Below are positions 16,077 through 20,062 of a DNA stretch of 64,000 bases, one piece after another. Source of the DNA: Candidatus Edwardsiibacteriota bacterium (GTDB lineage Bacteria > Edwardsbacteria > AC1 > EtOH8). Where the stretch lies: assembly GCA_020053305.1 (NCBI GenBank), contig JAGVNJ010000077.1:1-64000 (forward strand), in the 5' to 3' direction. Numbering within the stretch: position 1 is the first letter of the stretch; each line of letters starts with the position of its first letter. The notes under the pieces are model-generated. The model saw nothing but the letters and a program-made list of their open reading frames with translations, had not been told where the DNA came from and made no database searches. Both the position numbers and the translations under genes were made by a program.

Positions 16077-17348
16077 ATGCTGGATACCAAATTCATCCGA
16101 GAGAACATCGAACTGGTCAAGAAGGCCATCGCCGACAAGGGCGAGAAGGCCGACCTGGGCCCGTTCCTGGAGCTAGACGCCAAACGCCGGGCCATGGTCC
16201 AGGAGGTGGAGGTCTTAAAGGCAGAACGCAACACGGTCTCCGACGAGATCGCCAAACTTAAGAAAGAAAAGTCGCCCGAGGCCGATAAAAAAGTTTTGGA
16301 GATGCGCCAGGTGGGCGATAAGATAAAACTTTTGGACGACGACCTGCGCCAAGTGGAAGAAAAGCTGACCGAGATCACCCTGTCCCTGCCCAATCTGCCC
16401 GATCCCACCGTTCCGATAGGCCAAAGCGAAAAGGACAACGTGGTGGAGAAGACTGTCGGCGAAGAGAAGAAATTCGATTTTGCCCCCCAGCCCCACTGGG
16501 AGCTGGGCGAGAAACTGGATATTATTGATTTCGAGCGGGGGGTGAAAATGTCCGGCACCCGCTTCTATTTATTGAAAGGCGCCGGGGCCCGGCTGCAGAG
16601 GGCCTTGATCGCATTCATGCTGGATGTCCACACCAAAAAGCACGGCTACGGTGAGATCCTACCGCCCTACATCGTTAATCACGACTGCCTGATCGGCACC
16701 GGCCAGCTGCCCAAGTTCGCCGACAACCTGTATCACGATGCCGAGGAGGATTTCTGGCTGATCCCCACCGCCGAGGTGCCGGTGACCAATATGTACCGGG
16801 GCGAGATTTTGGACGGCACCAAGCTTCCGCTCTATCACGTGGCCTATACCGCTTGCTTCAGGCGGGAGAAGATGTCGGCCGGCAAGGATGTGCGGGGCAT
16901 CAAGCGGGGGCACCAGTTCGACAAGGTGGAGCTGGTCAAGTTCTCTTTGCCGGAGAATTCCAATGACGAACTGCAGAAGCTTTTGGCCGACGCCTGCGCC
17001 ATCCCCGAGATGCTGGGCCTGCGCTACCGCGTGGTCCAGCTGTGCACCGCCGACCTGACCTTCTCCTCGGTGAAGACTTACGACGTGGAGGTGTGGGCCC
17101 CGGGGTGTAACGAGTGGCTGGAAGTGAGCTCCTGCTCCAATTTCGGGGATTTCCAGGCCCGCCGGGCCAATATCAAGTTCCGGCGGGAGCCCAAGGCCAA
17201 AACGGAGTTCGTGCATACCTTGAACGGCTCTGGCCTGGCCCTGCCCAGGACCATGATAGCGGTGATGGAGAATTACCAAAACGCCGACGGAAGCATCACC
17301 GTGCCGGAGGTGCTGAGACCGTATATGGGGATGGATGTGATAAAATGA
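16077..17348 (+). CDS. serS: Seryl-tRNA synthetase
   Basis: A 423-residue class II synthetase: an N-terminal coiled-coil arm (~1-110, rich in E/K/R) that grips tRNA-Ser, then the catalytic core with motif 2 FRREKMSAGKDVRGIKRGHQFDKVEL (split around residue 262) and motif 3 ALPRTMIAVMENYQ (~383-396). It charges tRNA-Ser. The C-terminal end PEVLRPYMGMDVIK is complete, but a second, diverged copy of this end lies about 190 bases downstream (17501-17542), so the present 3' end may be a replacement. Confidence 0.97.
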   Translation: MLDTKFIRENIELVKKAIADKGEKADLGPFLELDAKRRAMVQEVEVLKAERNTVSDEIAKLKKEKSPEADKKVLEMRQVGDKIKLLDDDLRQVEEKLTEITLSLPNLPDPTVPIGQSEKDNVVEKTVGEEKKFDFAPQPHWELGEKLDIIDFERGVKMSGTRFYLLKGAGARLQRALIAFMLDVHTKKHGYGEILPPYIVNHDCLIGTGQLPKFADNLYHDAEEDFWLIPTAEVPVTNMYRGEILDGTKLPLYHVAYTACFRREKMSAGKDVRGIKRGHQFDKVELVKFSLPENSNDELQKLLADACAIPEMLGLRYRVVQLCTADLTFSSVKTYDVEVWAPGCNEWLEVSSCSNFGDFQARRANIKFRREPKAKTEFVHTLNGSGLALPRTMIAVMENYQNADGSITVPEVLRPYMGMDVIK

Positions 17349-17357
17349 TTTATCTAT

Positions 17358-17490
17358 CAGCGATACCATTCCGCCAAAGGCGGACAGGAAACAATATCGC
17401 TGGTCAAACATCAAGCCCGGCAAACCGGGTTACCGAGTCAGGCCTCGTAGAGGCCTTGTTGACTTCCAGCGATAGACTTTAGGCTATCGC
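17358..17490 (+). repeat. Array of four hairpins between serS and its duplicated tail
   Basis: Within about 130 bases there are four short perfect hairpins: CCGCC/GGCGG (17371-17383), CCCGG/CCGGG (17416-17429), AGGCCTC/GAGGCCT (17440-17456) and GCGATAG/CTATCGC (17469-17490). The first is enclosed by CAGCGATA (17358-17365) and TATCGCTG (17395-17402), and CAGCGATA recurs at 17468-17475. No open reading frame fits. It may be the ends of a small palindrome-rich mobile element or a structured RNA; a decision is not possible from one copy. Confidence 0.6.
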
Positions 17491-17500
17491 CCAAACCGCC

Positions 17501-17542
17501 AAGGTTTTACGGCCGTTCATGGGGATGGATGTGATAAGATAG
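17501..17542 (+). pseudogene. Second copy of the serS 3' end
   Basis: An open stretch encodes KVLRPFMGMDVIR followed by TAG, clearly homologous to the last residues of the intact SerS (EVLRPYMGMDVIK). The two share the identical 19-base block ATGGGGATGGATGTGATAA (17325-17343 and 17519-17537) but use different codons upstream. Upstream of Lys the frame leaves homology. It is a remnant left by an insertion or recombination event at the gene end. Confidence 0.85.
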
Positions 17543-17553
17543 AAAGTCCAGTA

Positions 17554-17886
17554 ATGAAATCTTTTACGCGCAATGATTGGATTGATCTTTTAAAAAGGGA
17601 CTTAGTCCCTATACCATCTTGTGATTGTGATGGTTTTAGGGAATATGCAAACCCCGAACATTTATTTGTTACTATTAAAACCAAAACAAACAGGAAATGT
17701 ACTTTTGGTGGGCCTGTTTGGTGCGCAATAATTAATATTCACGATAAAAAATATTTGTATGTTGATTACTTAAGCCCTTTAAAAAAGACACGTAGGTTTT
17801 TATGGGATAAAATTGAATCTATTGAATTTCGTTTTGTTACAGATGTTAAACATCCAAGAGATTTATTTTATAAAAATAATACCTAA
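17554..17886 (+). CDS. AT-rich ORFan, unknown function
   Basis: A 110-residue protein that I do not recognise. It has the Cys pair CDCDG near residues 23-27, a hydrophobic strand WCAIINIHDKKYLYVDYL and a basic C-terminal half; no signal peptide or membrane helix. Its DNA is far more AT-rich than all neighbours, with runs of AAA, ATT and TTT codons, which suggests recent acquisition. It starts 12 bases after the duplicated serS tail and ends 20 bases before the methyltransferase, inside the accessory patch. Confidence 0.65.
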   Translation: MKSFTRNDWIDLLKRDLVPIPSCDCDGFREYANPEHLFVTIKTKTNRKCTFGGPVWCAIINIHDKKYLYVDYLSPLKKTRRFLWDKIESIEFRFVTDVKHPRDLFYKNNT

Positions 17887-17906: not shown

Positions 17907-18536
17907 ATGACCATCTGGGATAACATATACAAAAACTTCCAAAACGGCGGAGAGGCCTGGGCCAGCCTATCGGAAGACATTCACCCCTTATTCAAACAAT
18001 TCCTGGAACACTCGGAATTCATTCTTAAGTACGCTTTGGACATCGGCTGCGGGACCGGCAAATATTTAAAACTCCTCCGGGCCGGCGGATTTAAGACCGA
18101 CGGAATAGATTCCAGCCAAACCGCGGTGGAAATGACCAAAAAGGAACTGGGCAGCGGCTCGGAGATCGTTTGCGCGGACATGTTTGGATACGACATCCCC
18201 AGAGACAGATACGATTTGATCCTTTCGGTCTCGACCATTCATCACGGGACCAAAGAACAGGTACGTTTGTTGGTAAGCAATATATATGAAGCGACCGCAG
18301 AGAACGGAAAGATATTCGTCACCGTGCCCGATCTTGCCAGCAGCAAAAAGTGGAACACCTTCAAGGAGCACCAAAAAATAACCGAGGGCACCTATGCCCC
18401 GTTATCCGGCCCGGAAAAGGGCCTGCCCCACAGCTTTTATGAAGAAAATGAGGTTCGGAAACTGTTCTCCAAGTTCAACGATCTGCGGCTGGACCTGGAT
18501 GACCGCGGCAGGTGGATAATTCAAGCGACAAAATGA
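17907..18536 (+). CDS. Class I SAM-dependent methyltransferase
   Basis: A 209-residue protein with the SAM-binding motif I ALDIGCGTGKYLKLL (~residues 43-57), the acidic loop DGIDSSQTAV and motif IV region YDLILSVSTIHHG. It resembles the TehB/UbiE-like small-molecule methyltransferases; the substrate is unknown. Its stop overlaps the start of a truncated GNAT gene (ATGATG at 18533-18538), so it was probably once cotranscribed with the complete GNAT gene. Confidence 0.88.
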   Translation: MTIWDNIYKNFQNGGEAWASLSEDIHPLFKQFLEHSEFILKYALDIGCGTGKYLKLLRAGGFKTDGIDSSQTAVEMTKKELGSGSEIVCADMFGYDIPRDRYDLILSVSTIHHGTKEQVRLLVSNIYEATAENGKIFVTVPDLASSKKWNTFKEHQKITEGTYAPLSGPEKGLPHSFYEENEVRKLFSKFNDLRLDLDDRGRWIIQATK

Positions 18537-18649
18537 TGAACGATATCCTCATCCGCCCACACCAGCCCGGCGACTCCATACCGGAGATCACCGCCCTCCT
18601 GCACAAGGCCTACGCCGGCATGGCCGGGCAGGAAGTAAAACGAACATAG
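18536..18649 (+). pseudogene. Truncated 5' copy of the GNAT acetyltransferase gene
   Basis: The frame begins MNDILIRPHQPGDSIPEITA and stops after 37 codons. Bases 18550-18632 match 19555-19637, inside the intact GNAT gene, at 81 of 83 positions. After GMAGQ the sequence diverges to EVKRT and a TAG stop, where the Bro-N unit begins. It still overlaps the methyltransferase stop, so this looks like the original start of the GNAT gene cut off by the insertion. Confidence 0.88.
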
Positions 18650-18665
18650 AAAAGTGAGGTATAAA

Positions 18666-19508
18666 ATGGCAGACAGCCTGCCGCTTGCCGTCTTTGAAAA
18701 TTATAAAATACGCAGGATCTACGATGAAAAAGCCGAATCTTGGTATTTTTCGGTTATTGACATAATTGCGGCTTTGATCCAGCAGCCCAACCACCAAGCC
18801 GCCCGGAATTACTGGAAAGTCCTGAAAAACCGGCTTAAAAAAGAGGGCAGCCAAACGGTTACAAAATGTAACCGTTTGAAGATGCCCGCGGAAGACGGAA
18901 AGCTCCGCATCACCGACTCGGCCGATGCCGAAACCCTGCTGCGGCTGATCCAATCCGTTCCCAGTCCCAAGGCCGAACCCATCAAGCTTTGGCTGGCTAA
19001 AGTCGGCTATGAGAGAATTCAGGACATGGGGGATCCTGCGCGATCGCTGGACCGCGCCCGGCAGTACTGGCAGCAGCACGGGCGGAGCGAAAAATGGATC
19101 CAGCAGCGGATGATGGGCCAGGAGACCCGCAACAAACTTACCGACTACTGGAAAGACCATGAGATCAAAGACGAAGACGAATACGCCATCTTGACCAACA
19201 TCATCCATCAGGAATGGAGCGGCGTGTCGGTAAAAAAACACAAGAAGATCAAGGGCCTTAAAACCCAAAATCTGCGCGATCACATGAGCGAAGCCGAGCT
19301 TATTTTTACCGCCCTGGCCGAACTATCCAGCCGCCAGATCGCCGAAAGCGTCGAGGCAACCGGAATGACTGAGAACGCCGAGGCGGGACAAAAGGGCGGG
19401 AAAATCGCCCGAAAAGCACGGCTATCATTGGAACGGAAAACAGGCAAGCGGGTTGTTACCGGCGAGAATTTTTTGCCTCCGGCCAAGGAAAATAAAAAGC
19501 TGAAATAA
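18666..19508 (+). CDS. Bro-N domain protein (antirepressor-like)
   Basis: A 280-residue protein with an N-terminal Bro-N domain (~5-100; IRRIYDEKAESWYFSVIDIIAAL and an AARNYWKVLKNRLKKEG core) and a helical C-terminal region resembling DinD-type proteins (DHMSEAELIFTALAE, then a Gly/Lys-rich GQKGGKIARKAR). Bro-N proteins bind DNA and are common in phages as antirepressors, but also occur as orphan chromosomal genes. The ATG at 18666 has GAGGT about 9 bases upstream; a GTG at 18654 is the alternative. It lies between 83-base direct repeats of the GNAT 5' end. Confidence 0.88.
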   Translation: MADSLPLAVFENYKIRRIYDEKAESWYFSVIDIIAALIQQPNHQAARNYWKVLKNRLKKEGSQTVTKCNRLKMPAEDGKLRITDSADAETLLRLIQSVPSPKAEPIKLWLAKVGYERIQDMGDPARSLDRARQYWQQHGRSEKWIQQRMMGQETRNKLTDYWKDHEIKDEDEYAILTNIIHQEWSGVSVKKHKKIKGLKTQNLRDHMSEAELIFTALAELSSRQIAESVEATGMTENAEAGQKGGKIARKARLSLERKTGKRVVTGENFLPPAKENKKLK

Positions 19509-19525
19509 CCTTCCGGCTTAATGGA

Positions 19526-20062
19526 ATGAACAATAACGCATCCAAAGAAATAATCATCCGCCCATACCAGCCCGGCGACTCCATACCGGAGATCACCGCC
19601 CTCCTGCACAAGGCCTACGCCGGCATGGCCGCGCAGGGCATGCGCTACCTGGCCTCCCACCAGGATGATCAGACCACTTTGGAGCGCCTCATCATTGGCG
19701 CTTCATTTTTAGCCGTAAAAGAAAACGCCATCGTCGGCACCATTACCCTCTACGGGCCGTATCCGGAGGCCGAGGCGTCCCTCTACCGGCAGGAGGGCGT
19801 CAGCCATTTCGGCCAGTACGCGGTGGACCCGGACCTGCAGGGCGCCGGCCTGGGCAAAAGGCTGTACCAAACCGTGGAGGACCATTGCCGGAAGAATAAC
19901 ATCAAAACTCTGGCTCTGGACACCTGCCAGGATGCGGCTGACCTGATAGAGATGTACCGGCACTGGGGCTTTAAGCAGGTGGACCATGTGCAGTGGGACT
20001 GCACCAACTACCGCAGCGTGATAATGGCGAAAGATCTGACCGCCCCTCCATCCCCTCCTTGA
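19526..20062 (+). CDS. GNAT family N-acetyltransferase
   Basis: A 178-residue acetyltransferase. Motif A is FGQYAVDPDLQGAGLGKRLYQTVEDHC (~residues 93-119), containing the acetyl-CoA loop Q-G-A-G-L-G. The substrate is unknown. The N-terminus (MNNNASKEIIIRPYQPGDS) differs from that of the truncated upstream copy (MNDILIRPHQPGDS), then becomes almost identical, so this copy probably received its first codons with the inserted unit. The stop codon lies inside a 24-base palindrome. Confidence 0.9.
   Translation: MNNNASKEIIIRPYQPGDSIPEITALLHKAYAGMAAQGMRYLASHQDDQTTLERLIIGASFLAVKENAIVGTITLYGPYPEAEASLYRQEGVSHFGQYAVDPDLQGAGLGKRLYQTVEDHCRKNNIKTLALDTCQDAADLIEMYRHWGFKQVDHVQWDCTNYRSVIMAKDLTAPPSPP

What the first reader, a model, noticed from the sequence alone, without database searches (positions are those of the whole stretch)
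18536..19637. Bro-N gene inserted between a truncated and an intact start of the same GNAT gene
Bases 18550-18632 and 19555-19637 match at 81 of 83 positions. The first copy is the start of a GNAT gene that still overlaps the methyltransferase stop and ends after 37 codons; the second is the intact gene with a different first ~12 codons. Between them lies a single Bro-N gene. The repeats are 1005 bases apart. This looks like a unit that cut the gene near its 5' end and supplied a new start, so that the host gene survived.
Basis: seen in the sequence. Interest (0 to 1): 0.8.

Follow-up and report, generated by a model that had tools for sequence, protein, structure and literature searches.

The report
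Gene inserted inside duplicated gene start
A single candidate phage-defence (Bro-N) gene sits between a leftover and an intact copy of the start of a neighbouring gene, and relatives carry other genes inserted in the same way at this and other places, so these bacteria repeatedly add single genes by duplicating roughly 30-200 bases at the end of a neighbouring gene, without any visible transposon or integrase.

Summary
In detail: window 18536-18632 and 19526-19637 are two copies of one GNAT gene start (82/84 identical in the core), 1005 bases apart, flanking one Bro-N gene. It is not specific to Bro-N. The same SerRS-GNAT interval in relatives holds different single genes (NUDIX, another GNAT, DUF3592-like), also separated by partial copies of the GNAT start, and others separated by copies of the SerRS 3' end. 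Similar gene-end duplications occur at lpxA, glyS, recN, a restriction gene and others in 1.66 Mb of related genomes: 20 direct against 2 inverted. [quoted passage not shown] The Bro-N protein matches PADLOC candidate defence family PDC-S13; three distant homologues also have flanking direct repeats. That the unit supplied a new start is not supported: the new first codons resemble a relative's GNAT start. Likely mechanism (inferred): one illegitimate plus one homologous exchange with imported DNA, after which the repeats act as homology arms. No exact empty site for Bro-N was found; empty sites exist for lpxA, glyS and an alaX-like gene. Known kind, new variant: varied cargo, stacked remnants, uncultured phylum.

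The parts
16077..17348 (+). seryl-tRNA synthetase gene, left border of the variable interval in G000, G001, G003, G007 and G008
   Evidence: Pfam Seryl_tRNA_N 7e-29; conserved left neighbour in the relatives
17349..17501 (.). non-coding stretch with inverted motifs between SerRS and the SerRS 3'-end copy; a similar stretch lies at the same place in G007, related pieces elsewhere in G007
17502..17540 (+). partial copy of the SerRS 3' end
   Evidence: local alignment score 46 against a shuffle maximum of 31; 28 nt at 89%, E 3e-4
17554..17886 (+). AT-rich ORF, 110 aa, no family match; probable earlier insert
   Evidence: no hit in Pfam, PADLOC or PHROGs
17907..18536 (+). class I methyltransferase gene; its stop overlaps the old GNAT start; probable earlier insert
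   Evidence: Methyltransf_25 8e-14; no match in the corresponding intervals of relatives
18536..18632 (+). R1: left copy of the GNAT 5' end (truncated ORF runs to 18649)
18633..19525 (+). inserted segment (893 nt if R2 is counted from its start codon)
   Evidence: defined by the ends of R1 and R2
18654..19508 (+). Bro-N gene (GTG start; alternative ATG at 18666), candidate phage-defence family PDC-S13
   Evidence: Pfam Bro-N 4e-7; PADLOC PDC-S13 5e-118; PHROG 15286 2e-85
19526..19637 (+). R2: right copy of the GNAT 5' end, in the intact gene
   Evidence: first codons resemble those of the G001 GNAT gene
19526..20062 (+). intact GNAT acetyltransferase gene
   Evidence: Acetyltransf_1 6e-15; orthologues in five relatives

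Best explanation
This is one case of recurrent single-gene insertion at gene ends with duplication of the target. A DNA segment carrying the Bro-N gene was joined into the 5' end of the resident GNAT gene so that the first 97 or so bases were left behind as a dead stub (R1) after the methyltransferase, while a second copy of the GNAT start (R2) follows Bro-N and runs into the intact gene. Shown: the layout; its repetition with other cargo at the same GNAT start and at other genes; inserts present in some relatives and absent in others. Inferred: the join was made by general recombination, with the incoming fragment (Bro-N followed by a piece of a related GNAT start) pairing by homology in the GNAT start and joining illegitimately on the other side; selection kept joins in which the flanking gene stayed whole; afterwards R1-cargo-R2 can spread by ordinary homologous recombination, since both arms match a single start in a recipient. 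Also inferred: the truncated start ORF ends right at the cargo start (4 nt before the Bro-N GTG), so Bro-N may be translated by coupling to the old GNAT start. The cargo is probably a solitary defence gene.
For: Direct repeat flanking one gene. Same GNAT start hit with other cargo: G007 R1-GNAT161-R1-NUDIX-GNAT; G003 decayed R1-DUF3592-like-R1-NUDIX-GNAT. SerRS 3' copies between inserts in G001, G007 and the window. Other loci: lpxA 5' with a 71-aa ORF plus a nucleotidyltransferase-like gene, same junction in G000 and G001, empty in G009; glyS 5' 205 nt in G003, gap 2877 nt against 156 in G001, and an alaX-like gene 5' 119 nt, gap 3472 against 78; recN 3'; a restriction gene 3' end in three copies. 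Direct against inverted gene-end duplications 20:2 (p about 1e-4). Sequence exchange: NUDIX 89% identical between G003 and G007 where SerRS is 81% and GNAT 77%; G001 and G007 GNAT 90% against SerRS 81%. G007 keeps a G008-like native start in R1, while its live start resembles that of G003. R2 start resembles that of G001. ComEC-family gene in all ten genomes. No other gene in the insert and no terminal inverted repeats.
Against: No donor with Bro-N in front of GNAT and no exact Bro-N-less twin (methyltransferase-GNAT) was found among ten genomes. Of 68 synteny gaps scored as insertions, only 3 carried a gene-end repeat, and one of those is a paralogue pair, so most gene gains or losses do not show this mark. 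The rate is not significantly above a 400-kb E. coli control for the strict set. Bro-N in G008 has no flanking repeat. ComEC is widespread (10 of 14 controls) and does not prove competence. No recombination step was observed.
Confidence: 0.6

Rival explanations
1. Insertion with a true long target-site duplication: a staggered break of about 100 bases at the GNAT start is filled in on both sides of a mobile single gene, as proposed for restriction-modification genes. No donor GNAT piece is needed.
For: R1 and R2 are nearly identical over 84 nt; lpxA repeats include about 34 nt upstream of the start codon; three distant Bro-N genes have flanking direct repeats of 95, 32 and 41 nt; the named precedent is cited in PMC3031569 and PMC1643837.
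Against: The start codons of R1 and R2 are not significantly alike (p 0.22) and each resembles a different relative; the cargo differs from case to case, so no single mobile gene can make the cut; repeat lengths vary from about 30 to 205 nt.
Confidence: 0.25
2. Homing-type element: the inserted gene product cuts the GNAT start and brings its own copy of it, like mobile endonuclease ORFs of fungal mitochondria that replace gene termini.
For: The anatomy (a duplicate gene end carried by a free-standing ORF) matches PMC3630166.
Against: No nuclease domain found in the Bro-N protein; the same site carries NUDIX or GNAT161 genes in relatives; G008 Bro-N sits elsewhere with no duplicate.
Confidence: 0.04
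3. Integron-type cassette insertion: the gene is a cassette integrated by the integron-type integrase at a secondary site.
For: G000 has an integron-type integrase above the curated cut-off (462 bits, C70:26420-27361); single genes of mixed function resemble cassette cargo.
Against: Only 17 nt lie between the Bro-N stop and the GNAT start, too short for an attC site; relatives with the same kind of insertions have no integrase above the cut-off; no cassette array noticed beside the integrase.
Confidence: 0.03
4. Tandem duplication of a longer block followed by deletion of the middle, or an assembly error.
For: Direct repeats are what such events leave.
Against: No second copy of Bro-N in the genome; the same type of junction is seen in separate assemblies (47, 48); the 84-nt repeat is short.
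Confidence: 0.04

Closest known systems
Insertion with long target duplication (Nobusato et al. 2000, Furuta et al. 2010; discussed in PMC3031569, PMC1643837, PMC4978471)
   Same: A gene flanked by a long, variable direct repeat made from the target; no transposase; attributed to mobile defence-type genes (restriction-modification).
   Different: Here the cargo is mostly not restriction-modification (Bro-N, NUDIX, GNAT, lipoprotein, reductase); several remnants are stacked at one locus; repeats lie at gene starts or ends so that the gene stays whole. The original papers were not readable here; details come from citing papers.
Homology-facilitated illegitimate recombination, as invoked for orphan immunity-gene arrays (PMC5361080) and shown in competent bacteria (de Vries and Wackernagel 2002, cited there)
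   Same: An incoming fragment anchors in one conserved gene piece and joins illegitimately on the other side, giving arrays with displaced remnants.
   Different: Here the anchor gene is an ordinary GNAT or tRNA-synthetase gene end rather than a secretion effector cluster; donor molecules are unknown.
Mobile endonuclease ORFs in fungal mitochondrial genes (atp6, atp9, cox2, nad3; PMC3630166)
   Same: An inserted ORF accompanies a duplicate gene terminus, and the displaced native terminus stays as a remnant.
   Different: There the ORF encodes a homing endonuclease and the 3' end is replaced; here no nuclease and variable cargo.
PADLOC PDC-S13 Bro-N proteins
   Same: Full-length match, 5e-118.
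   Different: Family is a computed candidate; defence function not tested for this protein.
E. coli DinD
   Same: Weak similarity, 23% over 209 aa, E 6e-5 for a single comparison.
   Different: Low identity; the window protein is much closer to PDC-S13 than to DinD.

Membership tests
Insertion with long target duplication | Insert flanked by a long direct repeat copied from the target | tested here: met
   84-97 nt, 97.6% in the core
Insertion with long target duplication | Related genome with a single target copy and no insert | tested here: inconclusive
   G001 and G008 have one GNAT start and no Bro-N, but other neighbours; clean empty sites seen for lpxA (G009), glyS (G001) and the alaX-like gene
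Insertion with long target duplication | Cargo is a restriction-modification system | tested here: not met
   Bro-N, no restriction or methylase domain in the insert; one G003 locus with a DNA methylase-like gene does show the pattern
Homology-facilitated illegitimate recombination | Donor molecule with one homologous and one non-homologous end | not testable with these tools
   No donor found; mosaic at the NUDIX insert of G007 is consistent
Homology-facilitated illegitimate recombination | DNA uptake capacity | tested here: inconclusive
   ComEC-family gene in all ten genomes, but also in 10 of 14 controls
Integron gene cassette | attC site at the 3' end of the cassette | tested here: not met
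   Only 17 nt between the Bro-N stop and the GNAT start
Homing endonuclease element | Inserted ORF encodes a site-specific nuclease | tested here: not met
   Only Bro-N family matches; no nuclease model
DNA transposon | Transposase and terminal inverted repeats, short target duplication | tested here: not met
   No transposase in the insert, no inverted repeat at its ends
PDC-S13 candidate defence family | Full-length profile match | tested here: met
   residues 6-282, profile 2-275 of 286, 391 bits
PDC-S13 candidate defence family | Protects cells from phage | not testable with these tools
   needs an assay

The most novel reading that the evidence does not exclude
In this uncultured phylum, gene starts and ends act as general docking sites: single-gene units of the form end copy, cargo, end copy move between species by homologous recombination alone, forming cassette-like arrays (as between SerRS and GNAT) without an integrase.
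Probability: 0.2. Interest if true: 0.75.

Novelty: new variant of a known kind. Interest (0 to 1): 0.5.

Why it matters
It gives a readable trace of how single genes, including candidate defence genes, enter operons without breaking neighbours and without a mobile-element machine. Stacked stubs at one locus preserve traces of successive insertions, and the flanking copies would make each insert transferable by ordinary recombination. This makes a mechanism proposed about 25 years ago for restriction-modification genes testable with other cargo in another phylum.

Tried and rejected
Bro-N as a self-homing unit: rejected by varied cargo at the same site and no nuclease match. Integron cassettes: an integron-type integrase is present in G000 but there is no attC room and relatives lack it above cut-off. 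Dispersed-repeat explanation: the GNAT start copies occur only at this locus in the ten genomes. Phage, plasmid and E. coli searches gave Bro-N homologues below 60% identity or none, and no near donor. Rfam and tRNA scans were negative. The E. coli control gave 1 gene-end event in 0.4 Mb against 13 strict in 1.66 Mb, not significant. Synteny-gap counting was noisy because my simple gene caller missed genes. PDC-S13 is not mentioned in the paper library. Furuta et al. 2010 is not held.

Full report
OBSERVATION. The repeat is real. Window 18539-18632 and 19544-19637 match at 94% over 94 nt, start-to-start 1005 nt; the core 18549-18632 / 19554-19637 is 97.6% over 84 nt, E 3e-36. The left copy (R1) opens at ATG 18536, overlapping the methyltransferase stop, and runs into a stop after 37 codons; the right copy (R2) begins the intact 178-aa GNAT gene at 19526. 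One gene lies between, 18654-19508, with a Bro-N domain (4e-7). It matches PADLOC family PDC-S13 over its whole length (5e-118) and PHROG 15286 of unknown function.

THE LOCUS IN RELATIVES. The window is contig 59 of a 2.59-Mb genome (G000). The only held relatives, also at phylum level, are nine genomes of the same family. GNAT orthologues occur in G001 and G003 (same genus) and in G006, G007 and G008. In G001, G003, G007 and G008, as in the window, seryl-tRNA synthetase is the left border and GNAT the right border of a variable interval (sequences). G007 reads SerRS, SerRS 3' copy, lipoprotein-like gene, SerRS 3' copy, HNH-like gene, GNAT 5' copy, a second GNAT-type gene, GNAT 5' copy (78 nt), NUDIX gene, GNAT. 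G003 reads SerRS, RelA/SpoT-like gene, decayed GNAT 5' stub, DUF3592-like gene, GNAT 5' stub, NUDIX, GNAT. G001 reads SerRS, lipoprotein-like gene, SerRS 3' copy, AT-rich ORF, GNAT. G008 has an HNH-like gene, the second GNAT-type gene and then GNAT, with no significant stub. In G006 the contig starts 151 nt before GNAT. Cargo names without a database hit cited here are read from the translated sequence by eye. Shuffle tests put the stubs in G000, G001, G003 and G007 beyond every one of 200 shuffles, except the most degraded G003 stub (L007 4372-4430), which is by eye only. The window also has a short SerRS 3' copy at 17502-17540. The GNAT-start copies are found at this locus only. So the site is a hot spot and Bro-N is one of several cargoes.

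OTHER LOCI. I fetched about 1.6 Mb from G001, G003 and G007 and with the window scanned 1.66 Mb for short local repeats. Gene-end duplications with the second copy outside any called gene: 20 direct, 2 inverted, one of the two at a terminator-like hairpin (binomial p about 1e-4). Some of the 20 are paralogues or doubtful; a hand-picked strict set has 13. Clear ones: lpxA 5' end in G001, with the orthologous insert and the same junction in the window's own genome (L129), and an empty lpxC-lpxA junction in G009; glyS 5' end in G003, 205 nt, with G001 as empty site (2877 against 156 nt); an alaX-like gene 5' end in G003 (3472 against 78 nt in G001 and G007); recN 3' end in G001 around a flavin-reductase-like gene; the 3' end of a large restriction-type gene in G003 present three times; a 5'-flank copy around a DNA methylase-like gene in G003. 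Caveats: a 400-kb E. coli stretch gave one event, so the rate difference is not significant for the strict set; of 68 synteny gaps only 3 carry such repeats, one of them a paralogue pair.

BRO-N ELSEWHERE. In the ten genomes the only other Bro-N of this type is in G008, between pfkA and a 357-aa gene; G007 has that junction empty and G008 shows no flanking repeat. Of five viral-contig and six plasmid loci examined, three show direct repeats flanking Bro-N: 95 nt at 76% just upstream of an integrase-like gene (L133), 32 nt at 91% (L150, Parabacteroides), 41 nt at 95% beginning at a parB stop (L152; partly palindromic, perhaps a parS-like site). In Arcobacter, Bro-N sits between cas4 and cas1 without repeats.

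MECHANISM. What the sequences show is duplication of a gene end around a new gene, repeatedly. What made it is inferred. Facts that favour recombination with related DNA over a simple staggered cut: NUDIX is 89% identical between G003 and G007 although SerRS is 81% and GNAT 77% identical; GNAT is 90% identical between G001 and G007 although SerRS is 81%. In G007 the stub keeps a G008-like start, while the live GNAT start resembles that of G003 for its first codons and then returns to G008-like sequence. In the window, the first codons of R2 resemble G001 (p 2e-4), those of R1 resemble G007 and G008 (p 0.003-0.009), and the two are not significantly alike. This means the live start probably came from a GNAT allele and was not supplied by unrelated insert sequence. 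Once made, R1-cargo-R2 carries homology to a single resident start on both sides, so it could spread by normal recombination. A ComEC-family gene is present in all ten genomes, which allows but does not prove DNA uptake. In three well-kept cases the stub ORF stops at the cargo start: 4 nt before the Bro-N GTG in the window, 12 nt before NUDIX in G007, overlapping the 71-aa ORF at lpxA in G001. This suggests translational coupling, untested.

COMPARISON. [quoted passage not shown]). It matches in anatomy, but the defining cargo of that description, restriction-modification genes, is not what is here. The homology-facilitated illegitimate recombination model has been proposed for arrays of orphan immunity genes (PMC5361080). 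Fungal mitochondrial mobile ORFs with duplicate gene termini are a formal analogue (PMC3630166) but need an endonuclease, which is not seen here.

VERDICT. It is a new variant of a known kind, of moderate interest.

Noticed in passing
window 17349-17501; L015 1530-1680: A non-coding stretch of about 150 nt with inverted motifs lies between SerRS and its 3'-end copy in both G000 and G007; related pieces occur elsewhere in G007 (L056, L057), so it may be a small mobile repeat.
   Followed up: partly
G000:C70:26420-27361 (L162): An integron-type integrase gene, 462 bits against a cut-off of 265, in the window's own genome only; no cassette array noticed nearby. G006:C29 has two fragments that look like a broken copy.
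   Followed up: partly
L129 (G000:C20, minus strand) and L069: lpxC-lpxA junction is a second insertion hot spot: four-helix protein, 71-aa ORF plus nucleotidyltransferase-like gene, and others in different relatives.
   Followed up: partly
L104 (G003:C5 near 568195, 571161 and 572369): Three copies of the 3' end of a large restriction-type gene, with a 340-aa ORF, a Vsr-like 121-aa ORF, a 252-aa ORF and a Fic-like gene between them.
   Followed up: no
L149 (Arcobacter cloacae plasmid pACLO): A PDC-S13-like Bro-N gene sits inside a type I-B cas operon between cas4 and cas1.
   Followed up: no
L008 (G001 GNAT) and L015 (G007 GNAT): GNAT genes of two genera are 90% identical while the neighbouring SerRS is 81%, pointing to exchange of the GNAT gene between genera.
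   Followed up: partly
L029-L030 (G001:C4:1-32000): Many intergenic repeats of 50-230 nt, some above 95% identical, dispersed over about 30 kb.
   Followed up: no
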